Positions 15,359 to 60,444 of a stretch of 64,000 nucleotides of DNA are shown here, piece after piece (positions within the stretch are counted from its first letter, which is position 1; each line of letters starts with the position of its first letter). Made by a program: the position numbers and the translations under genes. Origin of the DNA: Utricularia gibba (Eukaryota > Streptophyta > Magnoliopsida > Lamiales > Lentibulariaceae); assembly GCA_002189035.1 (NCBI GenBank), contig CM007991.1:1612001-1676000 (forward strand), written 5' to 3'. Below the pieces are notes generated by a model that saw only the letters and a program-made list of their open reading frames with translations, was not told the origin of the DNA and ran no database searches.

Positions 15359-18300
15359 ATGGATTCATTGTTAAAAAACGTTGACATTTCAAGTGAAAGC
15401 AGCAGCTCTGAAGATTTGGAGTATTTTGACTCTCTATATGGTGGACAAGCCTCTTCCATTATCTCTAGCCTTGAGGAAACCATCAAGAAAATTGACAACT
15501 TTCTCTTGTTTGAGAGGCAATTCTTCCATGGTGATATAGTTCGCTTGGCTTCAGACTCGAAGCAGCAATTAGGGAAGGTAGTCGATGTGGAAATGACTGT
15601 GAACCTGGAAACAGTTGATGGCTTCAAATTAGAGAATGTGAAGTCTAGAAATCTTCAGAGAATAAGGTCTTTTTCAGTTGATGACTATGTGGTTCTTGGA
15701 CCATGGTTTGGCAAAGTCGAAAAAATAACTGACCACCTAACAATCCGTTTTGATGATGGCACAAAGTGCCAACTGAGTGCAGATGGTAATGAGATGAACT
15801 TTGCTCTGTCCGCTGATGTAGTCGAAGATTCCATCTATCCTTTCTATCCTGGTCAAAGAATCCAGGTAGAGCCTCCATCTTTGGCAAAATTGACTCATTG
15901 GTTGTGTGGGCGGGGGAAGGATAAACAAACACATGGCACCATTGTGAACGTGGATGCTGGAGTTGCATGCGTAGAGTGGCTTTTCTGCGCCGCGATGAAT
16001 GTTGAAAAGGGGGGCTCTCCTCCAGCTATACAAGATCCAGGGAATTTAACTCTTCTCTCTGCATTTCCTCATGCAAGTTGGCAGCTTGGCGATTGGTGCA
16101 TGGTTCCAGTGGAGCAGAGCGTTCTGCACCCTTTTAGTTCTTCAGTGATGAGTAGAGATCAAAAAAGGTCAGAGATCTTGAATCAGAATGGGGATATTAG
16201 TTCTACTTTTCTACAAGTAGCTGTTATTACGGCGACAAAGAGAAAACTTGATATTCTATGGCAAGATGGGAGTCGATCACTTGGGTTGGACACGCATTTG
16301 CTGGTTCCTGTCAATGTTGTTGATCCTCATGATTTCTGGCCTCATGCAATTGTCTTGGAAAAAAGAACTTCGGATGGCTCTCAAGTTCTGAACTCAGAGA
16401 GATGGGGTATTGTCAAAAATGTCGACCCTAAAGAACGAACAACACAAGTAAAATGGTGCAAGCTGTCTCCGGGTGACGAAGAACACATTGAGACTGTCAG
16501 TTCTTACGAACTCATTGAGCATCCTGATTACTCATTTCGCCTTGGGGAAGAAGTTTGCAAGATGACTTCCTTAGACTTGGGAGAACCTGATGAATATCAT
16601 GTTGGTGATGGACAGTGTAATTTCGGCTCTGTTGCAGGATTTGAGAATGGATACTTCGAGGTGAAATGGGCTGACGGCAAAACAAGCAAGGTACCTATCA
16701 TTCATGATCTTTACTTATGTACTTCAGACGTGCATTGCTGACTTTCTTCCTTTTAAAGGTAGCACCATACGAAATCTCCAAGGTCAACAAATGCCAAGAA
16801 GCATCTGCATTGATGCTCAGTGATGAAAATGCTCATTCAGTGATCGAGGAACTTCCAAACCCACTCACCGATCTGAAGCTAAAGGTGAACTGTTTTTTTT
16901 TAATGATTTGTAGCAATAATGGGGGTTATTTATGCTTATGCTTGTACAGGATATCACAGACCATGACAGCGAGAACATTGGCAGCTTCAGTGTGAACTCA
17001 TTTTCCCACTTTGTGGGGTTTTATCAAATGTCACTTCAGGCATATTTGGTTCTCTCTACGCGTCTAACACAAAATCATGCAATGAGAGCACTTCAGAATG
17101 TAGAAACAACTGCAGTCAACTTCTCAAAGATGAACAAGTGGAACTTTGCAATTTAGATCTGTGCAGGGAAACTCTTGAAGCAGATGACTATGAGCCATAT
17201 CCACAGACTAGAGAAGTCAATTTGGCTGAGGATCAAAGAGATTTTAAGCTCTTTGATATGGTTAACAACTGCTCGGACCACCATTTTATCAAGGAATCTG
17301 GGATGGAAACGCAACCGCCACAGGTCAGAAAAGGAATCCCACCACTTTCTATAAATTGTCTAATTGGATTTTAGCCCAATTTTTTTTTTTTTTGCTTCAG
17401 ACGAAAAGAAGTTGGCTGAGGAATATTCATAAAGAATGGAGCATTCTGGAAAAAGATCTTCCTGGTGAGAACTCTCCCACATCTACTCCCTATAATGTAT
17501 TCCATCCTGTTAAAAAATTGTTGATCACAGATATTTTAGTGTTATCAAATGCCAAACTTGTTTTCTCGCTTTACTTTTTTTGATTGAAATGGTTATGTCT
17601 GATCAGAAAATATCTACGTGCGGGTCTATGAGGAGCGAATTGACTTACTGCGTGCTGCGATAGTGGGCACTGACGGAACTCCATATCATGATGGTCTGTT
17701 CTTTTTTGACATCTATCTTCCTCCACAATATCCCTATGAGCCACCAGTATGCCCCTTTTACCGATCACTGGGTTTTACTGTTTTTAACAGACACGTTTCA
17801 TGGAAGTGAACTCTCTACTTTTTCAGATGGTTCACTACAACTCAGGGGGGCTTCGAATAAATCCCAACCTCTATGAATCAGGAAACGTTTGTCTCAGTCT
17901 GCTGAATACATGGACAGGATCCCAAAGTGAAGTCTGGAATCCAGAGTCATCGACCATCCTCCAAGTCCTTCTTTCGCTCCAGGCTCTTGTACTCAATGAC
18001 AAGCCGTATTTCAACGAGGCTGGTTATGATTCCCAGATTGGGAAATCCGAGGGTGAGAACAACTCTGTTAGCTACAACGAAAATGCTTTTCTTGTCAACT
18101 GCAAATCAATGCTGTACATACTTCGCCAGCCTCCTCAGGTCATCCATCTTACTCAAAGAAATCCATAGGCTCCATTATCAGTACCACAGTCTGATATCCA
18201 TGTTTGCTGGTTTTGGAGCAGAACTTCGAAGACCTTGTGATGGATCACTTCAACAGACGGTGCAGGAAGTTCTTGCTGGCCTGTGAAGCCTACATGGGGG

Positions 18301-18476
18301 GTCTCCACTAGGCCACCCATTCCACTACCAGAATCCTGAACAAGGGAATCCAAGAGCAACCTCTACTGGATTCAAGATCATGCTCTCTAAGCTCCTCCCC
18401 CGTCTCATAGAAGCTTTCGCCCAAAAGGGCTTCATTTGCCAAGCTTCACTCAACGCGGGTACGTAACACGAGATTA
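15359..18476 (+). CDS. PHO2: PHO2 / UBC24 ubiquitin-conjugating enzyme, frame broken near the C-terminus
   Basis: Exons: 15359-16690, 16759-16884, 16970-17323, 17401-17464, 17607-17746, 17827-18138 and from 18222. The long N-terminal region is collinear with recalled Arabidopsis PHO2 (YGG, SSLEETI.KID, PHASWQLGDWC). The UBC fold starts near residue 607, with LPPQYPYEPP, HYNSGGL and the active-site Cys694 in SGNVCLSLLNTW. PHO2 is an E2 (possibly E2/E3) on internal membranes that sends PHO1 and PHT1 transporters for degradation when phosphate is sufficient. After AYM, frame is lost at the G6 run 18296-18301, giving a stop at 18309-18311 (805 aa). One more G restores a conserved tail (STGFKIMLSKLLPRLIEAF) to the TAA at 18474-18476, about 860 aa in total. 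An upstream in-frame ATG at 15305 falls in the leader intron. Confidence 0.95.
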
Positions 18477-19146
18477 TCTCTGTAACATATATATAGTTTG
18501 CTCTTGTCGCTGCCTGTGTAATAATATATGCCCGCTCTTGAAACTGATGGTGTGCGGCCAATGCTTGTGTTGTGTAATAAAGCCCTTGGGCACGTAACTT
18601 GCCAAGACCATGTTAAATATTTGTGGCTTGTCAGCCCTTCCACTTTGCTGTAATAGACTCAATATGACAATATCATGTTTGTCTATATCAAGAGCTTGTC
18701 GGATGTCGTGTGACAAATTGTACATTTAATTACGTAATTAGAACGAGAAAATAGTTAAGAAATTACGTGTTTTTTTAATTTCACATTTTCATTAATATAA
18801 ATAGAATAAATATATCCTTAATGTTTAAAAAAAGCATTTTTTTTTTTGCTTTTCGATTTTTCCGTTAATAATATTGAGAAAATAAAATTGATTAATATAT
18901 ATATATATATATTTTTATTGATATATATTTATATACGCTGCCCCGCGCCGTCTCGCAGGAGGGGCTTATAATTTAACGGAGACGACCCCCTCCTTGTTTC
19001 TCCAATTTCGCTTCGATCCCTTTTGGGCGGGGGCGATTTGTCTGGAAGGTTGAAGCTACTGAGGTCTCTGTTGTTTAACTGGAACTGAACGGAGAAAGAT
19101 TTGGGGCTCGAAATTGCTTACTGATTCTCCTAGGGAAACCGCGAGG
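18477..19146. other. PHO2 3' UTR and NRPB2 promoter
   Basis: No gene is seen. Contains a polyadenylation-type signal at 18576-18581, an AT-dinucleotide tract near 18895-18930 and a GC-richer leader from about 18940. A T-rich acceptor ending CTCCTAG near 19133 hints at a 5' UTR intron before the NRPB2 start. Confidence 0.5.
18576..18581 (+). terminator. Polyadenylation signal of PHO2
   Basis: AATAAA about 100 nt after the conserved-frame stop of PHO2, in a T/G-rich context. Confidence 0.5.
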
Positions 19147-24863
<5,717 letters not shown>

Positions 24864-25200
24864 GCCAAAACTCTGTACGATCACTTTACACTATTAGAAA
24901 GCATCTGCTCTACTGTACTACTTCTTACAATATGATGAGCATTTCTCTAACGCGTATGTTGTTTGAAATTTTGAGAATTTCTTCTGGTAATGTATTTCAA
25001 TTTCTAATGCATGCTACATTCATTCGCCAACTGCTCTAAAGCTGTTCCATATGTTATTACACAGACCAGACTGAGAAGGAGATGTATTCTCTTTGTCATA
25101 CACAGTATTTGTGCATGTGCGCACGTGTCTATATTACAAAAGGGATGATCCAGACGACGATTCTGGTTATGCCACTGCAGGGTCGAATTGGATGGACTGT
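24864..25200. other. Convergent 3' flanks of NRPB2 and the HMA-like gene
   Basis: AT-rich 3' UTR sequence shared by two genes that point at each other. No coding signal. Confidence 0.5.
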
Positions 25201-25494
25201 CTAATACATCGGTTGGTAGTAATAAGAATACGAGCGTGGAAGAAGATGGTGCTGCTGCGCGTCGAACTGGATTTCGTCTTTTGCCGGCCCGACAGAGATG
25301 ATATCCACGTGGCCGAGCTTCCGCAACTTCTCCACAACCTCCACCGGATCCATGTTTCCGACGATCGTCATCTTCTTGCTGCTGGTGTCAACGCCGATGG
25401 ACTCGACGCCTGAGATACCTGAAACTTTCTGCATCCCCTTCTGCTTCGTTTTCTCCGACGTGTAGTAGAACGTCAGTACAATCTTCTTCTTCAT
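25201..25494 (-). CDS. HMA-domain (HIPP-like) protein lacking the metal-binding CxxC
   Basis: Single exon, 97 residues. It is one heavy-metal-associated fold: KKIVLTF strand, helix, GVESIGVDTSSKKMTIVG, DPVEVVEKLRKLG, then DIISVGPAKDE, which matches plant HIPP/HPP proteins. The loop that normally holds CxxC reads TSEKTKQKG, so copper or zinc binding through that motif is not expected. There is no C-terminal CaaX isoprenylation box (it ends QPMY), so it is HIPP-like rather than a true HIPP. Several plant members without CxxC are stress- or pathogen-induced. A TATA box lies about 57 bp upstream of the ATG. Confidence 0.9.
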   Translation of the reverse strand: MKKKIVLTFYYTSEKTKQKGMQKVSGISGVESIGVDTSSKKMTIVGNMDPVEVVEKLRKLGHVDIISVGPAKDEIQFDAQQHHLLPRSYSYYYQPMY

Positions 25495-25550
25495 TTTCAG
25501 GAGGGGATTGTGGGCTCCTCCTTGTTATGCTTGTGTGTGTGTCTGTTTGG

Positions 25551-25558
25551 TTTTTATA
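25551..25558 (-). promoter_or_regulatory. TATA box of the HMA-like gene
   Basis: TATAAAAA on the minus strand, about 57 bp upstream of the ATG at 25494. Confidence 0.6.
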
Positions 25559-25905
25559 CATGGAATTTGCGACTGAGTTTGACGGCGATGCAGTGAAGAT
25601 TTCGTCCACGCGTGTGGCAACGCGTTTCCCTCTTGCGGAAGGCGTTTGTGTAGATGACGTCTAACGCGTTTTTTATGGGCCTATAATGGCCGCGTTCAGA
25701 AGCTCATTCCAATTTTATCTTGTTGGGCTTCAGCCCATAAAATAATGCTTCTTCTTGATACATCGGAGTGCCAAAAGCGGTCCACCGGGAATGCACCTCC
25801 GCCGGTTCACCGGAATCCTACCTACACCCACTCCAATAATGTACAACGCAGCAAAGTCACAAGTGCCTCCTCCTTTAGCTTCATCCTTATTGGGCAATGG
25901 ATTCG

Positions 25906-26836
25906 CTATCCGTCGCGGCACGGAGCCGGATTCGCGAGGAACGTCGGAACTTTGTTCCCCGGCATCACCACCGAAACCTCCGGTGCATCCTTCATACGAC
26001 AAGCCTGAACTCCAAACACCAAGCAAGAAAAAACGTCAACTTGTCTGCAGTGGAAAGTAGATCTCCCGGAATTAAATATTAGTCACAGGGGAAGGGATTG
26101 GTCGTTATCACAAGATGGAGGGACAACTAGGATTGAGTCATTGTTCCAAATAATTGGACCTCCTCACTTATCATCATGCACAATAATTGACATTGATAGA
26201 CAGTTACACAGGCTCACAGGCTGAGGCAATTCACCAACAAGATCCAACACATTATTGGATAGCACATCTCTAATGTCGGAAAGGATGGATTTTAATAACA
26301 ATAAGGTTCTGTTGATTGGTGGGGAATTGATACATGGGGTAGCTTATGTATTGGTCTTGAGGGGCCAAAACGCAGACACAAGAAAACCAGCAAACTCTCA
26401 TGATTTGACAGATTTCGTCATGAATGCAACCTGGTATTTTGTAATACTCTTCTCTATTACCATTTAATAGAAGTAGGGGCCATAACAAAACGAAAAGAAA
26501 AGAAAGGAACGAGCCCATCTGCATGTTTGTTCTTTGAATAGATTAATAAAAGTGATGAATGAAGAAATTGCTTACCTTGGGAGATGGGTGGCGGAGTTTT
26601 TGGTGGGAATTGGATGGGGCCTGGGACTCGAGGTCGTGGGCGGTGCGGCGGCGCCCCTCTGTCGCTCTGAGAAACTTCTCGAAGATGGCCATGGCGAGGA
26701 ACATGGAAATGAGGACGGCCGTGGCGACGAAGCCGAAGGATAGAGTGCTATCGAATTGCGCGGGGTGGCCTTCTTTCTCCGCGTACGAATACGACGGCGC
26801 CGCGGCAGGTGCCAGCGGCAGAATTAGGACTCGCAT
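25906..26836 (-). CDS. Small single-pass membrane protein, uncharacterised plant family
   Basis: Two exons on the minus strand, 26836-26576 and 26004-25906, giving 119 residues. One transmembrane helix (LSFGFVATAVLISMFLAMAIF) is followed by a basic stretch (EKFLRATEGRRR). Exon 2 carries the motif EVSVVMPGNKVPTFLANPAP, which I recall from small plant membrane proteins of unknown function. The intron donor is AAG|GTAAGC; the acceptor CAG before GCTTGTCGT keeps frame. The C-terminus after PAP is doubtful: it ends CRDG, but one extra base would give an alternative, longer basic tail. Other family members continue with a Pro/Trp motif there. Upstream in-frame codons to 26992 lie in the GA-rich leader and are unlikely to be translated. 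Confidence 0.7.
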
Positions 26837-26947
26837 GCCCCCAAAAGAAGGAAAAAAATATCGCCGGCGAAGAGTATAGAGAAAGGAGAAGAGAAAGAGA
26901 GAACTGAGCTTCGGTGCGCTGATCTTCGGTAGTTGAGCTTCGTTGTA

Positions 26948-26966
26948 CTCTCTCTCTCTCTCTCTC
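26948..26966. repeat. (CT)n / (GA)n microsatellite in the membrane-protein gene leader
   Basis: Nineteen nucleotides of alternating CT, read as GAGAGA on the coding strand of the minus-strand gene, about 110 bp upstream of its ATG. GAGA repeats are the known binding motif of BBR/BPC factors; one such factor is encoded 4 kb away. Confidence 0.85.
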
Positions 26967-28277: not shown

Positions 28278-28306
28278 CCCCCCCACCCCCCCCCCCCCCC
28301 CCCCCC
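28278..28306. repeat. C7-A-C21 tract
   Basis: Seven C, one A, then twenty-one C: the longest homopolymer in the window, in otherwise AT-rich DNA. Confidence 0.9.
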
Positions 28307-29174: not shown

Positions 29175-29214
29175 GGCTGGCTGGCTGGCTGGCTGGCTAG
29201 CTAGCTAGGTAGCT
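29175..29214. repeat. (GGCT)6 microsatellite grading into (AGCT)n
   Basis: Six perfect GGCT units (29175-29198) followed by AGCT, AGCT, AGGT, AGCT. It lies about 160 bp upstream of the TATA box of the next gene. Confidence 0.9.
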
Positions 29215-30626: not shown

Positions 30627-31665
30627 CTACTTGATTGTGATGTAGCGGTTCGTGCCATGCTTCGCCCAGTGCGGTTTAAGGTCCACAGGATTGGATAGAT
30701 CATGGCCATCAGCTGCAAGCCTGCTGAGAAGCTTGCTGAATGCACTGCCGCTCATTTTGCGACCTCCCACTCGGGCATGTCTCTTGTTTGGAACAGCTGG
30801 TAGTGGATACATTGACAGATTTGTCGTGCAGCAAGATGATTGCCAGCCTCCATTTCCCCATTTGTAGCACGGCCTAAGAACTCCGGTGCATGAACAGACT
30901 GGAACAGGCATTGTCGTCTCGTCAAATGAAACCTGGTTCAAACTAAGGTCCTGCTCCTTCCATTGCTGCTTGGATGAGCCAACTTGCCTGTTGATATCAT
31001 CGTTGCCGCTGCCCGAATCCTGGACACTCTTCCAAAGCACCATTTTGCTATGATCCTCTGCCTCTTCTTTAACCCTTTTTGATGATTTGGAGGGCCTCCT
31101 TGAAGCAGTTGCAGACACAGGCTTAGTCTCCTTGGCACGCTTTGCACGATACGCCTTGGCAGGTTCAGGAGCAACAGCGGCTATCGTAACTTGATCAGCC
31201 AGATTCATGTCACCGGAATCATATGGTGGATCATGTGCCTGCGGCTGAGGATGGTGAAGAGTTGAGCAATCTGGCAGCCGATAGGACATTGAGATATGTT
31301 GCTTACGTTATTTTCACGGTACTGAAGGGCAGCAATAGCAGTATCCCTTTCTATTATGGCATTGTTCCGTTCTGCAATAGCTCTGTCTCTCTGCAGAAAA
31401 GCCAAGTCCCTCTCAGCAATGGCCGCTTTCTTCTCGGAAATAGCCAAGTTTCTCTCTTGGATAGCGGCATCTCTTTCGGCCATGACGCCCATTATATGCT
31501 TCATCGATGGCTGATGCTGCATTAGCCACTGAACACAGGAGCATTTGCAAAATCACTGATAGAAAACACTATAAATCACACTGAAACAAATAAGCTAAGC
31601 AAGATCTCTACTTGGCCCTGAGTGGGCTTTAGCCTTCCGTTTTCACGGTGCGCACCGTCATCCAT
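30627..31665 (-). CDS. BBR/BPC GAGA-binding transcription factor (BPC4/6 group), one frame break
   Basis: Exon 1 is 31665-31612 ([18 protein letters not shown]); exon 2 is 31528-30627. About 318 residues in the repaired frame. The N-terminal Ala-zipper coiled coil ([20 protein letters not shown] and repeats) is the hallmark of group II BPC proteins. The C-terminal DNA-binding domain has the invariant pentacysteine region ([18 protein letters not shown], then SSCCTT) and ends NRYITIK. BPC proteins bind GA repeats in the nucleus and can recruit Polycomb complexes. Between CPIGCQIA and LHHPQPQ, around 31252-31272, the frame shifts by one base. Both sides are conserved in recalled BPC6, so the gap is a single missing base rather than an intron. 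A 66-nt GT-AG alternative would remove the conserved CPxGCQI block. Confidence 0.93.
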
Positions 31666-44000: not shown

Positions 44001-46674
44001 AATTCTAAGTTTAGACCCCAGAATAGCATCAGCTATACAGCTTGCATATTCATCATCTTCGTTCCCTGTTATTCCACCAAAGGTGCAAGGGCAGGATATG
44101 GCTCCTCCATCTCAACAATTGCAGCATGTTGCAAAAGTGCTTAAACCACCATTGCCCCAACCAGCCATAGCAGAATCAGTATTGCATGGCTCTCCCGCCA
44201 GAGAAGAGGGTGAGGTTCCAGAATCTGAACTGGATCCCGATACGAGGAGAAGGCTACTGATTTTGCAGCATGGCCAAGACACCAGAGAACCGCCAGCACC
44301 TAGTGAAGGACAATTTTCTGGTAGGCTGCCTATGCAGGTTAATTTACCTAGGGCTTCTCCACCAGGTTGGTTTCCAGTTGAAGAGGAGATGAGCCCAAGA
44401 CAGCTGAACCGACGGGCACCATCTGTGGAATTTAATGGAGAGACAATCCCGGATGGCAGACATTGGAGCCATCATGCACCTTTTCTTCATAAAGATGATG
44501 CATTACTCCTGCCAGGGAGGCCACATGAAAACGTGAGGCTTAGCAGGGAGGTACTGGATTTTTATGGTTATTGAGGTTCTTTTTTGGCAGATTTTAGTGT
44601 CAGTATCATAATGATTAACTTCAAGTACACTGATTGTCAATTTGCGCTTCTCTACAGGAACTTTCAAGAGGAGACATGCTAAGATTGAATCAGTCTTCTC
44701 CCGAGTTCCATCAATTTTCAAGAGGTAATTCACTCCTAAAAACCCTGGATTTAGTTCTATGTCTATTTGAATGCCAAGATTTGTTTGGAGTCGTAGGCTT
44801 TGTTAAGCAGTAATGGAATTTCTGATTGTGCTGCAATAGTTATTTTTTTCTTCCTTCAACTCTGTGAGGCATGTTTCCTATTATATTTCTTGATAAAATG
44901 ACATGGTTAACGTAGTACTAACTGCTGGAACAAAATGGCAACGATTAGCTGAATATATAATTTTCTTAATTAGAATAAATTGCATGTTTTTTCTGTTTAA
45001 TGGGACCGTAAACCACAGAATATTGAGCCCATTCTTCTCTTGTTTTGGGGATGCAAAGATATGAACTCAAGTGATAAAGATAAGATTTTTGGTCCTCGCT
45101 TTGTGAACCTTCGTAGGTGAGGAAAGCACAGTAGCAAAGCTATCAGTTGGAAAAATCCTTGCAAGCAAATCTGGTCAAATTGATCCCGCCATTGAAACCT
45201 TTTCTGGAGCATTACAAGAAATTGCATTTCAATGTGGAACTAAGGTGTGTGATTTGCTATGCTTTAAACTTCTGGCTTTATTTCGTGGCCTAGACTCTTT
45301 ATTTTTCTCTGTTAATTTGTAGGTGGAATTCAAGCCATCTCTAGTATCAAGTATTGAATTGCAGTTCTCAGTAGAGGTGTGTTCCTGCAATTGCGTCACC
45401 TGTAATTGTGGCACATTGTTGAAGGAATCGTGTCATCTTTTGATTTAAACTCCTGCATCTGCCGCTTATCCCCGTGTTCAAAATTTCAGGTTTTTTTTGC
45501 TGGACAAAAAATTGGAAAGGCCATTGGTAATACAAGAAGGGAAGCACAGAACCATGCTGCAGAAGAAGCTGTTTTCTATTTGGCCCGTGAGTCTTGATCT
45601 CTAAAAAAGTGTTTCTCTATCATTTTTTTTAAAAATTTTGTAACGGGTTAACGAGTGTGCATACAATCTTCATGAAAAATCATGTATTTGTGTTTGTTGA
45701 CGGTATCCGTCATGCTTCAAAGACTCTGTTTAACTGCTTGATCTGATGTTATGCAGGCAAATACTTGTCTCAATCAAAATCGGATGTTGTGCATGCACCT
45801 GAGAGCCAGAGTAAAATTGGGAACAGTGATTTCACTGGTGATGCCACCCGTGGCTATCAACTATTTTCCAAGGAAACATCCGTGCCTTCAACATCAATGC
45901 ATGATGCCTCAAGGAAATCTGTGGGTTTCATCTCTGCGCTCAAGGAAGTGGTAAGTATCAAAACAAACTTTTTTAGGCAATACAGAAAGTTAATGCTTTT
46001 TGCATGGACTTTCTATAGTTTAAGTGATTCCTAGGCTTCAAGCCTCATGTTTCAATGTCGATTTTTAATGGTCCAGTGCATGATAGAGGGCTTTGACGTC
46101 GACTTTCAAATTCGACCTCATTTTCCAGTTAACCGAGGTCAGAAAAACGAAGCTTATGTCGAGGTTAGTCTATCAAAAAAATGTTTTTCATGGACTGAGA
46201 CACTTCATGTCAGTAATATTTACTTCAAACTTTCGGAGTTTCAGGTTGAAGTTAATGGTCAAGTGCTCGGCAAAGGCATTGGAGCATCATGGGAGGACGC
46301 CAAGTCACAGGTAATGTCATCGTAGTTCAAGCTGGCGCCTTCTACACGTAACACTGTTACTGATTTTCCTGAAACTGCGTCACGCAGGCAGCAGAGAAAG
46401 CTCTCGCCGCCTTGAGATCCATTCTCGCGCAGCCCTCATACAAACGCCAGGGTTCCCGAGGTGAGATGTTTTTGGCCACACTGTACGAACTTATTATACT
46501 GATGTCTGGACGAGGGCAATGGCTTTGAACACCCAAACTCCATGCTCTGTCTCCTGAACTGTGCATCTTTACAGGCCCATGCACCAAGGGAATCCCAGTA
46601 AGAGGTCAAAACCTGAATTCTCTCGAGGTTTACCGCAACTATCCACTTCCCTTCGACACCCCAGGCCATCTTAA
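41057..46674 (+). CDS. CPL1: RNA polymerase II CTD phosphatase-like 1 (CPL1/FIERY2), frame break near the end
   Basis: Seventeen exons: 41057-41323, 42020-42496, 42698-42908, 42994-43151, 43231-43301, 43390-43495, 43663-43746, 43969-44550, 44658-44724, 45117-45244, 45323-45376, 45490-45586, 45757-45950, 46077-46163, 46245-46310, 46388-46460, 46575-46674. About 940 residues when repaired. The FCP1-type catalytic motif is FDLDETL (D144, D146). Two double-stranded-RNA-binding domains follow (starting about [15 protein letters not shown] and [15 protein letters not shown]). The linker has [22 protein letters not shown], strongly conserved in CPL1/2. CPL1 dephosphorylates CTD Ser5 and assists miRNA processing with HYL1. 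In exon 16 the run CCC at 46455-46457 needs one more C. That gives GSPR and the conserved basic tail (KRSKPEF) to TAA 46672-46674; as read, the stop is at 46732. Confidence 0.95.
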
Positions 46675-47618: not shown

Positions 47619-48243
47619 ATGGGGAGGATCGCGGTGCTGGAATCAGGCTTCTAAGAAAAAGTACTTCTTTTGGAAGGAAAAGGGTTGTTTCTTTACCCGC
47701 TTCTCGTACCCATTTTGTCGACCATTTCGATTGCATTTCACAGAGGACGCAGTCCTCTTTCGGGAGATCACCGCTTCAAGATTTGCCTCAGGAGATTCTG
47801 GTTCATGCCCTGGCTCTGTTTCATATCACGCTTGATTTGCTCTGTTTCTGTTGAATTGAATTCAGCAACTCATGATGGGTTTTGAATGCAGATTAAAATC
47901 GTTTGTGGGGTGGAACACGAGGATCTGAAACAGTTGCTCTTGGTCTGTAAGGCCATGAAAGAAGCCGTAAGTTTGGTTGTTTGTTCATCATAATCCCTTC
48001 TCTGCTGCAACTCGAATTAGCTCTGAGTTGCGGAAAATGCAGACGTTGATCGCGAAGCAGTGCCATTTCGCGTACAGCACTCCGAGGAAGACACTGAGGG
48101 GGCTTGAGGAAATATTGATGTGGAGTGACGTCGAGGCGCCCAACGCTCCCCGGCAGCCGCGATTACATCGCAGATCGTTGACGCCCAAGAAACTCGCTGC
48201 CATTTCTATCGCACTTTTTTCTCCTGAAACGGAAACAAACTGA
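47619..48243 (+). CDS. FBS1-type (stress-induced) F-box protein, frame break after the ATG
   Basis: Exons 47619-47800, 47892-47966 and 48043-48243; about 152 residues in the repaired frame. The F-box is short: SPLQDLPQEIL joined to IKIVCGVEHEDLKQLLLVCKAM, then TLIAKQCHFAYSTPRKT. The C-terminal signature EAPNAPRQPRL and LTPKKLAAISIALF identifies the FBS1-like group (At1g61340/At4g21510 type). These proteins join SKP1 in SCF-like complexes and are induced by wounding, JA and ABA. The only upstream ATG (47619) is one base out of frame with the conserved part, which has no ATG of its own. One extra G in GGGG 47621-47624 would give a full-length ORF whose total length is then divisible by three. 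Confidence 0.85.
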
Positions 48244-49023
48244 ATTTCATTCATATCCTGTGTAACAGCACACCACGCTTGTAAAGTAGAAAGCCTTCTT
48301 TGTTCTGTATCGATTCTTCAGCTTCCGGTCGTTGGAGAAGATGACGGCATGGCCCCTTGGATCTTTATCCATTAAGACACCCCATATTTTATTTTTTAAT
48401 TAATTTATTAATATATTCGCTTCTATGGGCCACAATCAAAAAGCCCTCTTCATTTTATACCAAAGCAGCTTTTCAATCAAGCCCATAAGGTTAATATCTA
48501 AAGCCCGATAAGCGGGTTTTGGCCCATCCGCAACACAGAAATTTAACTTATGAATTTTTAAAATTTTTTGGAATATATTCTATTTTTAAAACATCGCTTA
48601 AGAATCAATTTTATTTTCAAATAAGACCGATATATTAACAATAATATATTTGTTAATCAAGAAGGATAAAAAAATGAATATGTGGGCCCCGGTTGAAAAA
48701 TAATGATTTTCAAGACATCCTTGGGCCCACATTTCGAGCTATAGTTCACCCTTGCGCTATGGAAAGGACACGTGTGCTTTAGGAGCTTGTCTTTCCTTTT
48801 ATTCGGAAATCCAACGGAAAGAAATCCGGCGCGGTGGCGCGGGAATGTCTGGGTATTTCGCGGATCACTGAGTTCTCCTCGAGTACACCTTTCGGTGATC
48901 TATCAGCAGCTTGTGGGGGATGAATTTTTCTTCGTTTACTTTTCGTTGCTGCGTGTTAGATGACGTTGTTGGAGGCTATTTAACTTCAATTAGTCTTCAC
49001 TTGAAGTTTAGGGTATTCTGAAA
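48244..49023. other. 3' flank of the F-box gene and NDB promoter
   Basis: AT-rich 48.3-48.7 kb, GC-richer toward the NDB start. No coding signal; an ORF at 48772-48963 is probably leader sequence. Confidence 0.45.
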
Positions 49024-51918
49024 ATGGCGGCGTTCCAGAGGATTGGCCGAACACTACGCGAAAGGCCTGGGTTAACTAAATTGCTAATTGTTGTCACTGT
49101 CAGGTAATCTTTGATCTTCTAATGACGCATTTTGTATTTCCGCTGTGTTTTTAGAGATTTTAATTTGGGTGGATCCGTCTCGTTTAGTTTGGGTGAGATT
49201 AGACGCGAAAGTTATATGATCTGCTTACGTATTGTTGGTATGGTTGGTTCAGTAGTCTGTCAGCATTAAGTTCGTCCGGTGATTTAGTAGCTCTTTATAA
49301 CTTGGGATCCCTTTGAGCGGCAGTGGTGGCGGTGTTATGGGATTTGCTGATGCATCGCCAGAAAATGCAGTGAATACTGCAAGTTCAATTGGTTCGGAGA
49401 GAATGAAAAAGAGAGTGGTAGTGCTTGGAACTGGCTGGGCTGGAACAAGTTTTTTGAAAAAACTGAAAAATCCAGATTATGAGGTGCAAGTGATATCGCC
49501 CCGCAACTATTTTGCGTTCACCCACTACTACCAAGTGTGACATGTGGAACTGTAGAACCTCGCAGCATAGTTGAGCCTATCCGCAATATAATCAGAAAGG
49601 TAAGGCTTGTATAGTTGCGATCTCTGTGCTAAATGATAACACTGAGAACGTTTGGCTCGGTTTGTTTGTTACATGAACTCATCGAAAATTTGAAGGTTTA
49701 CTTTCGTGGAAGGCTTTTCCAAGTGGCCAATGCTTATCTCTTGATTTTTCACCCCCCTTTTTGTCGTAGAAAAATGTAGGAGCTCATTACTGTGAAGCAG
49801 AATGCTTCAGGATTGATGCAAAAGAGAAGAAAGTTTATTGTCATTCTAGAACGCTGGGTAGTCATACTGACGAAGAAGTGATTATTGTCGACTATGACTA
49901 CCTCGTCATTGCTGTTGGAGCTCGATCAAACACATTCAACATCCCTGGTGTGGCAGAGCATTGCCATTTCTTGAAAGTATATCAAGATGCTTTTCTGTGT
50001 AACAGTATTCAATTATATTTATTTATTTATCCCTGAAATTTTGAACTATTTAGTTGGCTTTTCTGATTTATGGAAATGGTCTGAATATACCAAAATTTTT
50101 AGCGCTGTTGTGGCTCTTACTTTCATTGCAGGAAGTAGAAGATGCTCAAAAGATCCGCCGCACAGTTATTGATTGTTTTGAAAGAGCATCTTTGCCTAAC
50201 CTCAATGAAGAAGAGAGAAAGAAAATCCTTCATTTCATTGTTGTTGGTGGAGGACCAACTGGTGTTGAGTTTGCTGCAGAGCTTCATGATTTTGTGAATG
50301 AAGATCTGGTGAGGTTATACCCCAAAGTTAAAGAAGCAGTTAAGATAACGCTCGTTGAAGCAACTGACCACATCCTAAATATGTACGATTTTTCTAGTAC
50401 CAAAGATTTGTCCTGTTACAGCTTCTGTAAAATGGAAATGTAGCAATCATATTAAAATTCCTTTTTTTTTTTTTTTTTACTATCAGGCACTAGATTCAAA
50501 CCACCGTAGGTGCTTCCCATCAGTTATGAATCTCTGAAGTCTTTTACCGCAGGTTTGACAAAAGAATTACAGCATTTGCCGAGGAAAAATTTCAGAGAGA
50601 TGGCATTCATGTGAAAACTGGTGCTATGGTTGTCAAAGTATCAGATGAAGATATTTCTATAAAAGAAGTTAAGCAAGGTGGGGATGTATCCACTCTCCCC
50701 TATGGCATGGTTGTCTGGTCAACTGGCATTGGCACTCGTCCAATTATTGTAGATTTTATGAAGCAGATTGGCCAGGTAATCCACTAGAGACACAGAATTA
50801 TCCTTTTTTTTCAATCTTTGATGACTGTAAATTTTAGCGGATGATATCTTGCGCTTGCTGCCACCCAGGGTAGTAGACGTGCAATTGCAACAGATGAGTG
50901 GTTGCGAGTGAATGAATGTGATGGTGTTTATGCAATTGGGGACTGTGCAACAATTTATCAGCGCAAAGTCATGGTAACCAACTTTATGTGATACCTCTTG
51001 CTTTACATTGTGGCCTATCTAAAATGCTAGTTTTTGAAACTTGTAAGGATGACATTTGGGCGATATTTCAAAAAGCAGATAAGGACAACTCTGCAACACT
51101 TACGGTGACGGAATTCCAAGAAGTGATTGATGATATATGTGAAAGATACCCCCAGGTTGCACTCTACTTGAAAAATAAAAGGATGACTAATCTGGTTGAC
51201 CTCCTTAAAGATTCCAAAGGTGATGCTGCAAAGGAATCTGTTGAAGTCAACCTCGATGAATTCAAGGCTGCCCTTTCTCAGGTGGATTCTCAAATGAAGA
51301 ATCTTCCAGCTACTGCCCAGGTTAGAACTTGGATACCGCAGCTTTTGAAAATTTCAACATGGGTATCCAAAAGCATAGAAAAAGCAAATTGGTTATTATA
51401 GATGATGACAGATAACATCAGTTCTTTTATGGATTTCAGGTTGCTGCACAGCAAGGTTCTTATCTTGCTGACTGCGTTAACCGTATGGAAGAGTGCGAGA
51501 GAAAACCAGAAGGGCCTCTGCGTTTCAGAGGTGAAGGACGTCATCGTTTCAAACCCTTCAGGTACAAAAATCCAACTGAACCGCAGCAACCACAACTTAC
51601 TAAATCCCTCCTCATTTTTCCTAAGATACAAGCATTTTGGACAATTTGCTCCTCTGGGAGGTGAACAAACTGCTGCCCAGCTTCCTGGAGACTGGGTTTC
51701 AATTGGTCAAAGCACACAGTGGCTTTGGTATTCTGTCTACGCAAGGTGTGATTGCCATCTTCTCCCCATAACAATTCCTTCTTCAGTCATGTAACTCCAT
51801 GGTTAGCTAACCACCTTGAGGCATCTGCAGCAAGCTCGTTAGCTGGAGAACAAGAGCACTGGTGATATCAGATTGGGTGAGACGCTTCGTCTTCGGGAGG
51901 GACTCAAGCGGCATATAG
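49024..51918 (+). CDS. NDB: External alternative NAD(P)H dehydrogenase NDB (EF-hand type II NDH), one frame break
   Basis: Ten exons: 49024-49103, 49318-49599, 49770-49976, 50132-50382, 50553-50775, 50869-50973, 51048-51320, 51440-51561, 51626-51745, 51831-51918. 583 residues when repaired, like Arabidopsis NDB2. Two dinucleotide-binding folds are visible: VVVLGTGWAGTSF (FAD) and FIVVGGGPTGVEFAAE (NADH). The inserted Ca2+-binding EF-hand loop is DKDNSATLTVTE, and the C-terminus is the family's WLWYSVYA to FGRDSSGI. It oxidises cytosolic NAD(P)H at the outer face of the inner mitochondrial membrane without proton pumping. In exon 2 the run CCC 49521-49523 must be CCCC to read FAFTPLLPSVTCGTVE; as written a stop follows at about 49540. 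Confidence 0.95.
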
Positions 51919-54074
51919 TTCACACAAGCAAGAAGCCACCCTTTCCCTTCAGGTCCAACTTGCTCCTCAGACCCCATCCTGGTGCCCATCTTGCTATTTG
52001 GCTCACACTTGTGTTCTCATCGAAACTATAGTTAAATAATCATGGTTGAATTCTTTTGGACTGCAAATCCTTCACCGGTCAAATTTGATTGAATTACAAG
52101 TAAACTGTTTTAGAATGACGATCGTTCAGACAAATACATTTTTTCATCTGCTTTTGTCAACAATTCTTGTGTCTGCTGTGGAGGTCTAAAACACCAAATG
52201 TCGGCCCCGTCGCATTGTGGGGATGAAGTCCACGTCACGCGAAATCGGCAGGCCACGTGTCACGGCCCCGTGGATAAGGAATGGAACAAGAGGAAAAGGA
52301 CGACGACGACCACTGGTCACTTGTCCGAATAGGGGGACAACATTCCACGTGTCAATTTCCGCATTTACAAAACCCTTTCTCCCTTTTTCTTCCCACATGG
52401 GATCTTATCCACGTACCCAAATCATTCGATCCCCCTAAAAGAATGTAATTTAGGGTTTCTAAAAAAAGCGCTTCATTGAAATTCTTACATAATTTTTTTT
52501 CACCAATTTACTTTCTATTCTAATACAAGAGTAAAAATAGCGTGCAAGGTGAAGGTGATAATCATTTTATTATATATTAAATTAAAAAATTTACACTATT
52601 AATAATCTTTTTTTTCGTAGAATGCATGATATATGGTCACATTTATAGTTCATCCATTCTCTAGGTCCCTTCAATCATTCGAGGGAAGCCAACTAGAAAA
52701 TGAACTATCTTTTTTTTATCAATATTTTTTTTTTAAAAATAGAATAACAGCTGGATGGCTGCTGCTTTTACCATTTTCAAAACGATGCACAATAAAAATA
52801 AATTTTAATTACAAAAATAGCATCCGTAAATTGGATTCCCAGTTGGGTAATAACATGGGAAAACAGCTGGATTTGGTGGACTGCTATTGAATCGGGTCAA
52901 GATCCATGAAACCGACTTGGCCCGCCCGTATGTCGATTGACACTTCTACCCACAAAGCCGACTCAACGATTCTCCTTGCAGAAGGCGGTTACAGTCATTT
53001 TCTTTCTATTGACGTTTAAAATCTGTGTGCAGCGGGGAAAGGGGAAAAAAGGAGTAGGGCTTATTATGCTATCGTGCGCCAGACGGCGATACGGCTACAC
53101 GTGGAGGATGAAAAGATGGGCGGTGCGTGGATCCGAGGGTGGAGGAGCTCCGGGTGTTTTCAGTCGCCATTATTTGTCAAAAGGGTTAGCTTCCTTCGTC
53201 CGTTGTGGGTGGGGTTGCGTAATAATGGAAGGCTTTTATTCGGTAGCGGTAGTTGTACACGGTCTTCCTTGGGCGCTTCTTACGAATTTCCTTGAGAAGT
53301 AGGGTATATATATAGTAGTGATGTATACATTTTGGGGGTTTCATTGGATAAGCATGTCACTGGTTCATCATCGAAGTTTATACTGTAGAATTTCCTGTCA
53401 CTGTTTGTTGGGGTGCGACGCTTTTTCTTATATCTGCTAGTGGGTTTTGGGATGACTGGATGCTTTCCTTGGATCTCTGACTTCTCTTCCCCCAAGCGCT
53501 TGGTACTGAGGTGAAGGTCCCAATTGCAGAATTCTCTTCCTCGCTTGTCTTTTGCTTGGGTTCTTGCGCAAATCTTGCTTTGACCCAGAAGTTGTGCTTC
53601 TGGCGTTGTTGTTTTGTGTAGATCCCATTAAATTTTTGGACTTGCGAGGGTTATCCAGATGCTGCTTTGACTTTTGTTATGGTTTATTGGTTTTAGGTAA
53701 TTAAGATTGCGCTTTTTGCGGTAGTCTTGAATAATTTCTTCTTTTTTTGGGATTTGTCTTTAATTGATTGCGCTTTTGCCTACTTTCGATGCTGGAACTT
53801 AGCTAGTGACTAGGATTTGTTGGTCGATCTCTTCACGAATCTTGTGTGTAGATTCGGCGTGGTATCTTGAAATGGGATGGGTTTTGAATCTCTCTGAGTT
53901 CCTTATGGTTTGTGGGATTCTGATGATAAAAACTTGGTCTTTTACGTGGCTGCATAAAATTCTCGGACTGATTAAGCTGGGCATCGTTGTGAGGTTTTCC
54001 TGTTTAATTTCTACAGGACATTCGACATTTGAATCTGCGCTGGCCCTGAGTAAATCGCCTTAGGGAAACCTCGA
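51919..54074. other. NDB 3' flank and promoter/leader of the AFB gene
   Basis: 2.1 kb without a supported gene. Holds a G-box-rich segment (52229-52425) and, nearer 54 kb, sequence that should be the AFB leader. ORFs at 52186-52438, 52937-53302 and 53806-54063 show no domain. Confidence 0.5.
52229..52425. promoter_or_regulatory. G-box/ACGT-core cluster
   Basis: Perfect CACGTG at 52254-52259 and 52346-52351, plus CCACGTCA near 52230 and CCACGTAC near 52420. Two of the sites are in the CCACGTGTC form seen in ABA-responsive elements. The cluster sits about 300 bp beyond the NDB stop and 1.7 kb upstream of the AFB ATG, so which gene it serves is unclear. Confidence 0.45.
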
Positions 54075-56517
54075 ATGGTTTTCAGTCAAAAAAGATTCAA
54101 GGACTACCCGTCACTCAAACCCATGTCAAATGGATCAATACATTTTCATTCTCCTTTCCCAGATGAGGTATTGGAGAAAATTCTTTCATTTGTAGATTCA
54201 CACAAGGACCGGAATTCGGTCTCCCTTGTGTGTAAAGACTGGTATAATGCCGAGAGATGGACAAGATCAAAGCTCTTCATTGGAAATTGCTATGCTGTGT
54301 CCCCTGAAATCGTGGCTAAAAGGTTTCCAAGAATTAAAAGTGTACTACTCAAGGGGAAACCCAGGTTTTCGGATTTCAATATGCTTCCATCAGGTTGGGG
54401 AGCAAATGTGCATGCCTGGCTGATTAAATTTTCCAGTGTTTACCCGTTTCTGGAGGAGCTGAGGTTGAAGAGAATGATGATCGGCGATGATAGTTTACAG
54501 CTGTTGGCAGATTCTTTTCCCGGCTTCAAAGCTTTGTCTCTTTCTAGTTGTGAAGGCTTTTCCAATGATGGACTCAAAGCCATTGCTAGAAATTGCAGGT
54601 AAACAGTCCCAGCTTTTAGTCTTTTAGTCGTTTAGTCGTGGAGTTTCATATTGAGTATTTATAAGGCCTACATATGTACCTTCTAATGAAGGCTTTAGGA
54701 TCTGATTGAAGGATCTTCCTGTTTTTCTTTTTATCCGTTTTTTTCTGACAAGCATCTATCTGTTGCCCTTTTACATGATGGTAGAAGTTTTTCGAATAAC
54801 TGTAATGCTAAGGTTGCATGGAGTGGCTTCTTGAATGGAGTACCACGGGTAGATTCTCTCTATGGGGAGTAGGCATGTTGGTCGGGAGCCCTACTCCTTT
54901 TTTTTTAAGTTATTTTCTTGGTTTCTAGTGAGCTGCTTTGTATTATTATTTGTGTTTTCTGTCATTGGATGCCATCACTGGATTCCATTTTTTACCGCTG
55001 GTTTCTTTAGTCTTAACACTCTCCGACATAGAGCATATAGTCATAAGAGATTATGCAAATTTCTTTTCACAAATAGTCATATCACATTGCACAGATGAGG
55101 TTTTTTGCCAGCTTCGATTTTACAGTTCGTTTGCATTCTACAATTCTGTCGGTCTGATGTATTTATCTATTTACAGGAACTTGACCGTGCTTGACATCCA
55201 AGACTGTGTTATGCTGGATGGACGTGGAGACTGGGTGAGCGCATTTCCAGAAAACTTCAACTCACTGGAAGTGCTTAACTTCAGCAGGCTTGACAGTGAT
55301 GTGAAAATTGATGATCTGGAAAGACTTGTTACTCGATGCAGATCATTAAAAGTTCTCAAGCTAAATGAAAGTATTCCTTCAGACCAACTTCATCGGTTGT
55401 TAGTTCACACGGCTCAGCTTACTGAGCTTGGCGTTGGAGTCTCCCTGGAGGTGCCTCAAGACGTACTGTACAAGGATCTTGAGAGTAATCTTAACAAGTG
55501 TAAAAACCTTCAAGTGCTCACAGTTCTATGGGATTCGAATCCTTTCTATCTTCCCATTTTCTTCGGTGCTTGCTCCAGCTTGACTTTCATCAACTTAACT
55601 GATGCACCTCTTGACAGTGGTGATTTTTCAACTCTTCTTAGCAAGTGCCCAAATCTTCGCCGTGTCTGGGTAAGCTTCTTAACATCAACTACAGACTATC
55701 AACAGTGTTTTGGAGGGAAACCTTTTCATTATCGTTGCTAAACAGCTCTTTTAATATCTGGTTCTAGGTTCTTGATACTGTTGAGGACAAGGGCCTTGAA
55801 GCTCTTGGATCAAGTTGTCCCTTGCTTGAAGAATATCGTGTTCTTCCTTACGATCCTTATGACCTTGATCATGACCCTGGTGTAACAGAAGTGGGATTTG
55901 AAGCTGTTTCACGTGGATGCCCCCGGCTTCATTATGTTCTCTACTTCTGTAGGAGGATGACTAATGCTGCTGTCAAGGCTGTTGTTCAAAATTGCCCAGA
56001 TTTCACTCATTTTAGGCTCTGCATTATGAGTCCATGCCAGCCAGATCATACGACAGATGAACCCATGGATGAGGCCTTTGGTGCGGTGACTAGGACTTGC
56101 GGCAAACTCAAAAGACTTTCAATCTCAGGCCTTCTAACTGACTTGACATTTGAGTACATTGGCAGATACGCTAAGAATCTTGAGACGCTTTCTGTTGCTT
56201 TTGCTGGGAGCAGTGATAGGGGGATGCAGTGCGTTCTTGAAGGTTGTCCTAAACTCCGAAAACTTGAGATTAGAGATTGTCCATTCGGAAATGGAGCCTT
56301 GTTAGCAGGGCTTGCGAAATATGAGAAGATGAGATCGCTGTGGATGTCTTCGTGTGCTGTGACAATGAGGGGCTGCAGTGTACTCGCAAAGCAGATGCCG
56401 AGGCTTAATGTTGAAGTGATCAAAGACGAAGAAAACGATATAGCCGAAAAGCTCTATGTATACCGATCATTAGCTGGGCCGAGAACAGATGCCCCTTCCT
56501 TTGTTCTCACTCTTTGA
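54075..56517 (+). CDS. TIR1/AFB auxin receptor F-box protein, AFB6-like
   Basis: Three exons, 54075-54598, 55177-55669 and 55768-56517; 588 residues. The F-box is at about residues 27-65 (FPDEVLEKILSFV, RNSVSLVCKDW), followed by 18 leucine-rich repeats. FRLCI carries Arg422, the residue that contacts the auxin carboxylate in TIR1 (R403). The sequence VLDTVEDKGLEALGSSCPLLEE, FTHFRLCIMSP and the C-terminus DAPSFVLTL resemble AFB6 receptors, a class absent from Arabidopsis. At the TIR1 H78 position there is Arg (KGKPRFSDFN, R97), as in AFB4/5. It acts in nuclear SCF complexes that bind Aux/IAA proteins with auxin. Family is certain; the AFB6 subgroup is a judgement from recalled sequences. Confidence 0.93.
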
Positions 56518-58735
56518 AAAGAACCCAGAACGAGAATCCACCTGGTCAGTAGTTTTTTCTTGCTCCCTTGACGACGAACACACTTTGTTGCAATTTCCAT
56601 TAGCCTTTTCACCCTCTGCATGATCGGTTAGCTAAGATTCTGGGATCTTGTTAGTTTTTAATCCCATTACTGCTGCTTGTTTCCACAGGATCAACTGAAG
56701 GTTCGAGTGTGTGCTAAGCAGCAGCAGCAGCAGCCGGCAGCAGGAGCTACTTGGAAAGTCTGTAACTTTCTCCACTGCAGTCATAGATTGATAGGGGAGC
56801 TTGTTCCGATTCGTCTTCCGGTAAAAGCCCGGTTGGTTTTCGTTTCGGGTTTGCTGTTGGGGTATTTGTATGTTTAGTCTGTCGACTGTTTCGTGTATGG
56901 GTTGTTGTTGTCGTTGTTGCACTCCATCTCCGTTGAAGCAGATGTCAGTTAAAGTTTGAATGGCGAACATGGAGGATGGCCTAAAGGGTGGGTTGAGTGG
57001 CGTTAAATGCAGGATGAAGTCTGGCAATGTACAAATTTTCTCTGCATTACTTCATTCTGCTGAATGCTGATTCTTCTCCTGCAACCTGCCACCATGCCAC
57101 ATTTTCATTCGAGACTCGGAGCTCTTCAAATGAAACGCATATTGCCAGAGCTGGCCTGCCTAAGAGTCCTGCTTCACCTGGGGAGTTTTGCCACAAATAT
57201 GCCAAGAACACATCATGCTCGCTCCCTCTGTAAGATCACATAATCCCAATCATCGTCCTAATCCCATCTCCCTGAAAGCTAAGGATGTTCTGTTTCTTCC
57301 AAATTGGAATGTGTGTTCTGGAGGGCTGATAGTGTGGCGTGGCTGCAAAGGAAATCAGCTTCAGAACACATCCTCCTAAGGTTCCAAAACCCTTAAACAA
57401 TTTCATCCAACTATGAATTCTTTTGGATCGAAAAGGATTTAAATCATATTCCACCATTCAAAGCAGAAGTAGTACTGCTTGGGAGTGGGATGCGGAGGAG
57501 GCTCCAGCCAGTTGCTAGTTGGTAGTTGGAAGTTGGAAGTTGGTCTTCTTCTTCTTCTTCTTCTTCATTACACGTGTCAGTCAACGAGGTGTCCGGATGG
57601 AATGAGTGGGATTATTTGTTGTTATTGTATTTACGAATTCGGAAACATATTCTTGGAATTGAATTGAATACGGGAATTATTGAATTATTTGCTGAGGATT
57701 TATGTGGCGTAGGTCATCTTCTTACATAATAGAGTATCATAATTCAATTAATCACCCAATTCCATAATGCCAGCACCAGCATCTACCTTATTGCCAGCCA
57801 ACCCTGCCCTATGACCGGTGCCTTTCACGCCACGTGTTCACCCCCGAAATCACCATTTTACCCCTTTATTTTCTTTTATTTTATTCATTTAATATTTAAG
57901 ATACATATTATATAAATATTTGTTTTCTTCGGCGCAACAGCCGAAGGTCATTTTCCAAATCCTGCTGCCATCACCGATGTGGTGTGATGGGCCTCCATGC
58001 TAATCTAATCTCCCATGTCGGCCATTTCACTCCTTTCACCTAAAAAAAGAAAAATAGTTTTACAAAATAAAATACAAATTCTATTTAATGAATAATTTAT
58101 AAAAGATGTAAGATGCAATTTTGTTACTTAAATCCTTTTATATGGTCAAGATGTATCGAAATTGATTTAAAAACAGTTTTGTTATCAAATACGAACAACT
58201 ATGTTCCGAAAATTTAAAACTACTTTTCATTTTTAAAAAATTATAAAATCTCAATTTCTAATTTTTCGAAAGCGTTTTTCTGAAACATAACGTGATGCTT
58301 ACATTGATTTATGTTTACCATAAGTAAAAAGAGGAAAAAGATGCTTTTTTTGGTTATAGAACTGGACTTTTATTCTAAATATTTTAAGATGATAAATAAA
58401 TTCATGTTCTTGGAAAAATTACTAAAAAAATGCCAAACCAAGGTATGTATGGCAGGTGGGTAGAATCTGGTGGTTAGATCTCCATCAGCCAATTTTCTTT
58501 CTTTTTTTTTTTTACCGTGTGGTTGAAAGGAAAAGGTTATGGGGGTATTTTAGTAAAATAGCATAGTCGTATAATTCTGTTAGCTTAGGACCCAGAAAGA
58601 AAGATAAGCGCGTGTACCCAGACGGATTGTGCGCATTCGGAGAGAAACGAGCGCCCGTGAATTCTGCTGAGAAAACTAGTTTCTTGGTCGCCGGAGGAAA
58701 ATGGCGGTTTCCCGGAGCTAGCCTGACTCCGAAAA
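56518..58735. other. AFB 3' flank and upstream region of the ARM-repeat gene
   Basis: No coding gene supported. A CAG-rich patch is near 56725 and a (TCT)n repeat is at 57544-57566. 57.8-58.5 kb is strongly AT-rich. Short ORFs lack domains. Confidence 0.5.
57544..57566. repeat. (TCT)n microsatellite
   Basis: Twenty-three nucleotides of perfect TCT repeat, preceded by a degenerate run of GTTGGAA units (57510-57543). Confidence 0.85.
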
Positions 58736-60444
58736 ATGAGTGCAGATTCCGGGGCCGAAAAGCCGAGACTGAGGCAGGCGATAGTGGTGGCCTCCGCGTT
58801 GATATCAATTTCTCATTCAATCGGAGTCTTCACGTCGAAATGGCAGTCCATTAGATTGAAGCTCGACGATCTGTTTTCCCACTTATCAGCAATCGACAAC
58901 TGCGACCCAGTTGGAATTTTGTCGCTTTCTATAATTTTGGACGCCATTTTGGCTACCCTAAATCACTGCGAAGAGCTTGCGAATCTGTGTCTGGAGTCAT
59001 CCTACAGCGGGAAGCTTCTTATGCAAAGTGATCTTGATATTGTGTGTGTGAAACTGGATGCCCATATCAGGAATTTGTCTGATATTTATGCTACGGGATT
59101 ACTCAGGCAGAGTAACGCTTTAGTGGTTTCTAGGCCGAGTGTTACCGCTTCGAAAGATGATGTGGGATTCTATCTCAACGATTTGTTGACAAGGTTGAAA
59201 ATTGGGAGCGTTGAAATGAAGAAACAAGCCCTTTCTTCTTTCAACGAGGTCATTGAAGAGGACGTGAGGTATGTAAAGATTGCCCTGGAACTCGATGGAT
59301 TTGTCAATTTTGTTGTTAAATTTCTTGACTCAACGGAGGAGGGATACGAAGCGAAGCTGCTAAGGCGGCCTCCGTGATCGCGGGGCTGATTCCGGGTAAA
59401 AACGCGTTGCTTTGTGCCGGAATCATTGCTCCTTTAGTTAGAGTTATTGAGTCATCTGGGAGCAGTGATCAGAGCAAGCAATATGCAACAAGGTGTTTGA
59501 TGAAACTCACGGAGAATTCTGACAATGCGTGGGCGGTTTCTGCTCACGGTGGAGTCACTGCTCTGTTGAAGATTTGTGAGCATGGAAGCAAATACGGGAG
59601 TGAATTAGTTGCTTTAGCTTGTGGGGTGTTGAAAAACATCATTGGAATTGAAGAAATCAGGAGGTTTATGGTTGAAGAGGGGGCAATTTTCGATCTTCTC
59701 GAGCTTGCGAAGTGCAAAGATGAGGCTTCACAGGTATTTTCACTTGACCTGTTGCAAACTATGGCTTACTGTGACGAATCAGTGAGGAAGATAATCTTCA
59801 AGGAAGGCGGCATTCGGGTTCTGGTGAAAATACTGGATCCCAGATCATCCGTATCGATGAAAACGAGAGAAATCGCGTTGAGTGCGATAGCGAACGTCTT
59901 CATTTCAACGGAGAACTCCATTGATCAGCTGCTAAGCATCTCCTTCATGGATCACATCCTCTACTTCCTCAGACATGGTGAAGTTTCTGTCCAAGAACTT
60001 GCCTTGAAGGCTGCATTTTGGTTGTGCGGGATTTCAGAGGAAGCCAAGAAAGCCATGGGAGAAGCAGGGTTCTTGCCGGTTCTGGTCAAGTTCCTTGACT
60101 CAAAGTCATTCGAGATTTGCGAAATGGCTGCCGAGACACTATCCAACATGCTCATTCTATCCAAGAACCAGAAGAAATTCGTGCAGAACGAAGAGAACAT
60201 CAGCTCTCTGCTGCGGTTACTGGATCCTGAGGACAAGAACTCAACCAACAAAAAGATGCTACTTTCAATACTCAAGTCATTAATGAGCACCAACACCGCA
60301 AGGAGGAAAATCGCCAGTTCAGGTCACTTAAGGAACATAGAAATGCTCGCAGCATCTGAACACCCAGATGCTAAAAAGATAGTTAAAAAACTATCATCGT
60401 CCAACAGATTCCGCAGCATGATAAACAGATTCTTGAATTCTTGA
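58736..60444 (+). CDS. Armadillo-repeat protein without U-box, one frame break
   Basis: Intronless. The first ORF ends at TGA 59375-59377 and a second ORF continues in another frame. One extra G near 59356 gives EAKAAKAASVIAGLI and a single 569-residue protein ending at TGA 60442-60444. It is a helical N-terminal domain (about 1-190) followed by ARM repeats (KQYATRCLMKLTENSDNAW, ELVALACGVLKNI, ELALKAAFWLCGIS, EMAAETLSNML). No U-box or other enzymatic domain is visible. It looks like a plant ARM-repeat adaptor of unknown partner. The length is a multiple of three only after adding one base, which supports the single-gene reading. Confidence 0.88.

What the first reader, a model, noticed from the sequence alone, without database searches (positions are those of the whole stretch)
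18296..59356. At least six conserved genes each lack exactly one base
PHO2 (G6 at 18296), NRPB2 (GGG at 19168), BPC (about 31252-31272), CPL1 (CCC at 46455), NDB (CCC at 49521) and the ARM gene (G at 59356) are each collinear with their family on both sides of a one-base gap. The FBS1-like gene (GGGG at 47621) probably joins them. All are losses and most sit in short G/C runs. NRPB2 is essential, so a broken copy is implausible. The pattern fits under-called homopolymers in the consensus.
Basis: partly seen in the sequence, partly recalled or inferred. Interest (0 to 1): 0.8.

Follow-up and report, generated by a model that had tools for sequence, protein, structure and literature searches.

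The report
Assembly drops bases in G/C runs
Seven plant genes here look broken by a missing letter, but the same loss recurs across the whole genome assembly at runs of G or C, so it is almost certainly a sequencing-consensus error and not gene loss.

Summary
The frame breaks are real in the letters supplied and almost certainly not in the plant. NDB and the ARM gene lack exactly one base against intact relatives; PHO2 is one base short against a paralogue. NRPB2 fits the same, with no second copy in the assembly. CPL1 is likely but rests on reading frame alone. BPC is 10 nt (3n+1) shorter than its homeologue, and the FBS1-like gene is 2 nt longer than its homeologue, so for these two "exactly one base" is not shown. 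The ARM break lies near 59335-59343, not at 59356.

The pattern is genome-wide. In 38 GRAS genes (41 kb) outside the window, 14 are broken by 20 shifts, 19 of them loss-type. Breaks cluster at G/C runs (p<5e-5) and not at A/T runs. The share of runs that sit at a break climbs from under 0.1% (length 2) to 5 of 9 (length 6). Five GRAS paralogues break at one G/C-rich motif, and near-perfect HSP70 genes break the same way. Sequence beyond the break still evolves as coding in the ARM gene (p=4e-10) and BPC (p=5e-8). Published HGAP/Quiver PacBio assemblies show the same residual error. No new biology.

The parts
18296..18301 (+). PHO2 (UBC24-like): run of six G at the frame break in the last exon
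   Evidence: Three-frame translation; -1 shift at 18298 against the C1 paralogue L089
19168..19170 (+). NRPB2 (Pol II second-largest subunit): GGG at the frame break in exon 1
   Evidence: Shifted frame matches RPB2 N-terminus in the PDB; no other copy in the assembly; no ATG in the conserved frame before codon ~55
31252..31272 (-). BPC (BASIC PENTACYSTEINE, GAGA_bind): frame break, net 10 nt shorter than the C414 homeologue, no homopolymer
   Evidence: PF06217 match split at 1643256/1643307 on C3; nucleotide alignment; downstream codon-phase constraint p=5e-8
46455..46457 (+). CPL1: CCC at the likely frame break before the last intron
   Evidence: Frame and splice phase only; no relative found elsewhere in the genome
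47621..47624 (+). FBS1-like F-box gene: GGGG at the start codon, frame out of phase with the rest
   Evidence: the C414 homeologue is open and differs by 2 nt here
49521..49523 (+). NDB (type II NAD(P)H dehydrogenase): CCC at the frame break
   Evidence: Four paralogues open across the site; collinear with Ndi1
59335..59343 (+). ARM-repeat gene: GGAGGAGGG, corrected place of the frame break (finding gives 59356)
   Evidence: 1-nt gap at 59338 against the C414 homeologue; downstream codon-phase constraint p=4e-10

Best explanation
The breaks are consensus errors of the genome assembly. When reads are merged into a consensus, the length of short runs of G or C is under-called, most often by one base, and this was not corrected with accurate reads. 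The plant's own genes are very probably intact. Shown here: breaks in this direction, at G/C runs, genome-wide, with a hazard that rises with run length, in genes whose remaining sequence is intact and (where tested) evolves as coding. Inferred: that the assembly is a PacBio CLR assembly of the HGAP/Quiver type, probably Utricularia gibba from its size and contiguity; the published contig count of 581 does not equal the 516 seen here.
For: Genome-wide in 38 GRAS genes: 20 shifts in 14 genes, 19 of loss type, G/C runs enriched at the breaks (3.89 against 2.22, p<5e-5), A/T runs not. Break share rises with G/C run length to 5 of 9 at length 6; for runs of 4 or more 11/191 G/C against 1/254 A/T, p=6e-4. 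Five GRAS paralogues break at one G/C-rich motif. HSP70 genes otherwise near perfect have one -1 break. NRPB2 has no second copy. The two ARM homeologues break at different places, and the shifted frame stays under codon-phase constraint; BPC too. Method control: 95 of 96 simulated one-base losses recovered. Precedent: HGAP3/P6-C4/Quiver assembly with 205 residual indels nearly all in G or C homopolymers (PMC4832174); 561 single-base homopolymer deletions in another (PMC4888979).
Against: No reads were available. BPC is not at a homopolymer and its gap is 10 nt, so it may be partly or wholly real. FBS1 is ambiguous. The rate (about 0.46 per kb coding) is above that in the two cited bacterial assemblies. 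The published contig count of U. gibba differs, so platform and species are inferred.
Confidence: 0.93

Rival explanations
1. True one-base deletions: the genes are recent pseudogenes, for example from a real deletion bias in a shrinking genome with many duplicated genes.
For: Paralogues open across the site exist for NDB, BPC, PHO2 and FBS1, so single losses could be tolerated there; BPC has a 10-nt gap outside any homopolymer.
Against: NRPB2 has no other copy. Broken genes are otherwise clean, 19 of 20 GRAS shifts have the same sign, and the breaks follow G/C but not A/T run length. ARM and BPC stay constrained in the shifted frame, although this would not exclude very recent loss.
Confidence: 0.05
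2. Some of the apparent breaks are gene-model mistakes: another start codon or splice site makes the gene intact as written.
For: Applies in principle to CPL1 (next to the last intron) and FBS1 (at the start codon), where evidence is thin.
Against: NDB, PHO2 and ARM break inside exons that relatives read in one frame. NRPB2 has no ATG in the conserved frame.
Confidence: 0.06
3. Programmed -1 frameshifting, or slippage of RNA polymerase, reads through real one-base gaps and makes whole proteins.
For: The downstream frames stay under constraint, and PHO2 has GGGGGGT in the right frame.
Against: No slippery heptamer at the other six sites. Paralogues break at different places or not at all. Dozens of unrelated genes would need it.
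Confidence: 0.01

Closest known systems
Residual G/C-homopolymer indels in HGAP/Quiver PacBio CLR assemblies (PMC4832174, PMC4888979)
   Same: Single-base deletions, in G or C runs, left after polishing with the same long reads
   Different: Those are bacterial genomes with a lower rate, shown with Illumina reads; here a plant genome, shown by comparing genes
Gene-fragmenting indel errors in long-read assemblies (Kastor, PMC12007338)
   Same: False pseudogenes caused by consensus indels, mostly deletions at homopolymers
   Different: That study is on small genomes, with Nanopore data to a large part

Membership tests
Homopolymer under-calling in a long-read consensus | Strong excess of losses over gains | tested here: met
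   19 of 20 GRAS shifts and 7 of 7 in the window have the sign of a loss
Homopolymer under-calling in a long-read consensus | Located at homopolymers, with hazard rising with run length | tested here: met
   G/C runs only; share at a break 0.06% at length 2 to 5 of 9 at length 6
Homopolymer under-calling in a long-read consensus | Spread over the assembly, not tied to one locus | tested here: met
   GRAS, HSP70 and KCS genes on many contigs
Homopolymer under-calling in a long-read consensus | Raw or accurate reads contain the base | not testable with these tools
   No reads held
Pseudogenes by real deletion | Relaxed constraint or further lesions in the broken copy | tested here: not met
   ARM and BPC substitutions downstream concentrate at third codon positions of the shifted frame; GRAS and HSP70 cases otherwise clean
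Programmed -1 ribosomal frameshifting | In-frame slippery heptamer X_XXY_YYZ at the site | tested here: not met
   Present at PHO2 only, absent at the other six

The most novel reading that the evidence does not exclude
The bases are truly missing from the genome and the plant restores the frames when it makes RNA or protein at G/C runs.
Probability: 0.01. Interest if true: 0.95.

Novelty: not a real feature. Interest (0 to 1): 0.15.

Why it matters
In this assembly about a third of the GRAS genes tested (14 of 38) look broken when they probably are not. Counts of pseudogenes, gene losses or small deletions taken from it would be inflated, which is a particular trap in a small genome where deletion bias is an attractive explanation. 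Any one-base loss at a G/C run in this sequence should be treated as unproven until reads are checked.

Tried and rejected
Comparing the overlapping contigs C316 and C412 was meant as a direct error test; one 4.1-kb stretch has 10 gaps all on one side and 1 substitution, but another shows many substitutions and larger gaps, so the contigs are diverged haplotypes and the test is only suggestive. C241 against C304 is likewise divergent. A plastid control with psaA/psaB failed: the psaA copy on C515 (267.5 kb) has several lesions and degenerate stretches and looks like a plastid-derived insert in another organelle contig. The genome paper itself is not held in the library. Eight GRAS loci were left out of the statistics: one redundant haplotig (L019), three with likely introns, one with several lesions and three fragments or divergent ones.

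Full report
What was checked. The window is G000:C3:1612001-1676000 of a plant genome of 100.09 Mb in 516 contigs. I translated each cited place in three frames, compared it with relatives inside the same genome and in the PDB, and then asked whether the rest of the assembly behaves the same way.

The seven sites. In NDB the first frame ends in a stop shortly after NYFAFT, and the conserved sequence continues in another frame. Four paralogues (C255, C328, C505, C98) are open across the site; the window copy lacks one base at 49521 against three of them and at 49522 against the fourth. The joined protein, with an unknown residue at the junction, aligns to yeast Ndi1 without a gap there. In the ARM gene an 84%-identical homeologue on C414 places the gap at 59338, in GGAGGAGGG, so the position given in the finding, 59356, is about 18 bases too far downstream. 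In PHO2 a frameshift-aware alignment to the C1 paralogue puts a -1 shift at 18298, in the run of six G; the alignment to the more distant C414 copy stopped short of the site. In NRPB2 the frame after GGG 19168-19170 matches the N-terminus of RPB2 (E 3e-18), and no ATG exists in that frame before codon ~55. CPL1 is plausible from frame and splice phase only, because no relative of the stretch exists elsewhere in the genome.

Two corrections. BPC is shorter than its C414 homeologue by 8+2 nt at the break, i.e. 3n+1, so a single lost base is not demonstrated and no homopolymer is involved. The FBS1-like gene differs from its C414 homeologue by +2 nt at the start codon, which has the same effect on frame as one lost base but could be either.

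Is this window special? No. I took all matches to the GRAS family in the genome, built a profile from intact members, and aligned every member with a program that allows frame shifts. After leaving out one duplicate, intron-like cases, one multiply damaged copy and fragments, 38 genes with 40,965 nt remain. They hold 20 shifts in 14 genes: 17 losses of one, two gains of two (same frame effect) and one gain of one. In 96 trials with one base removed from an intact gene, the method reported a single -1 shift 95 times, with a median position error of 1 nt. The rate of loss-type shifts is about 0.46 per kb of coding sequence. With very roughly 20 kb of coding sequence in the window (my estimate by eye, not computed), some nine would be expected; seven were reported.

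What the losses follow. The longest G/C run within 7 nt of a loss averages 3.89, against 2.22 for random positions in the same genes; none of 20,000 resamplings reached this. A/T runs show no effect, 2.32 against 2.36. Assigned to the longest run nearby, the share of G/C runs at a break is 0.06% at length 2, 0.35% at 3, 3.3% at 4, 3.6% at 5 and 5 of 9 at 6. For runs of four or more it is 11 of 191 for G/C and 1 of 254 for A/T, p=6e-4. The assignment favours long runs, but equally for both kinds. Five paralogues (L033-L036, L039) break within profile columns 134-138, each next to a G/C run. Two cytosolic HSP70 genes, almost perfect otherwise, each have one -1 break; a KCS gene on C4 shows a split of the same sign.

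Why the plant's genes are probably whole. NRPB2 has one copy; all other matches are at most 56% identical and look like other polymerases or an organelle contig. Between the ARM homeologues, substitutions after the break fall 40/31/95 on codon positions one to three of the shifted frame (p=4e-10); for BPC they fall 13/16/51 (p=5e-8). So both stretches kept coding for long after the duplication. The ARM homeologue has its own one-base gap at another place, so both copies look broken, each where the other is sound. This does not exclude very recent breakage of any one gene.

Mechanism. The most likely cause is under-calling of G/C homopolymers in a long-read consensus without short-read correction. 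An HGAP3, P6-C4, Quiver-polished assembly was left with 205 indels, nearly all in G or C homopolymers (PMC4832174), and another with 561 single-base homopolymer deletions (PMC4888979). The genome looks like Utricularia gibba, assembled with HGAP at 88x (PMC5793159), but this is inference, and the contig counts differ (581 published, 516 here).

Rivals. True pseudogenes fail on NRPB2, on the clean remainder of the broken genes, on codon-phase constraint and on the dependence on G/C run length. Programmed frameshifting fails because only PHO2 has a slippery heptamer in frame. Gene-model error remains possible at CPL1 and FBS1.

Verdict. It is an artefact of a known kind, of practical and not biological interest. 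Reads were not available, so the last proof is missing.

Noticed in passing
window 30627-31552, 47621-48243, 58736-60444; L082, L091, L081 (C414:1399900-1414560): BPC, the FBS1-like gene and the ARM gene all have homeologues within 15 kb on C414, so the window and that part of C414 look like a duplicated block in which NRPB2 and CPL1 kept one copy.
   Followed up: partly
L092 (C515:70100-72400): A psaA copy with several lesions and degenerate stretches, next to an open psaB frame, on a 267.5-kb contig; perhaps a plastid-derived insert in the mitochondrial genome. No psaA match was listed on C516, which carries an open rpoB.
   Followed up: partly
L019/L020 and L079/L080 (C316 against C412); L062/L063 (C241 against C304): Short contigs duplicate stretches of long ones with substitutions and structural differences, so they look like second haplotypes kept in the assembly.
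   Followed up: partly
G000 contigs C1, C2, C505, C507, C515: Five contigs have lengths that are exact multiples of 2,500 (8,500,000; 6,192,500; 3,452,500; 642,500; 267,500), which chance would rarely give; it hints at trimming or chunking in the making or storing of the assembly.
   Followed up: no
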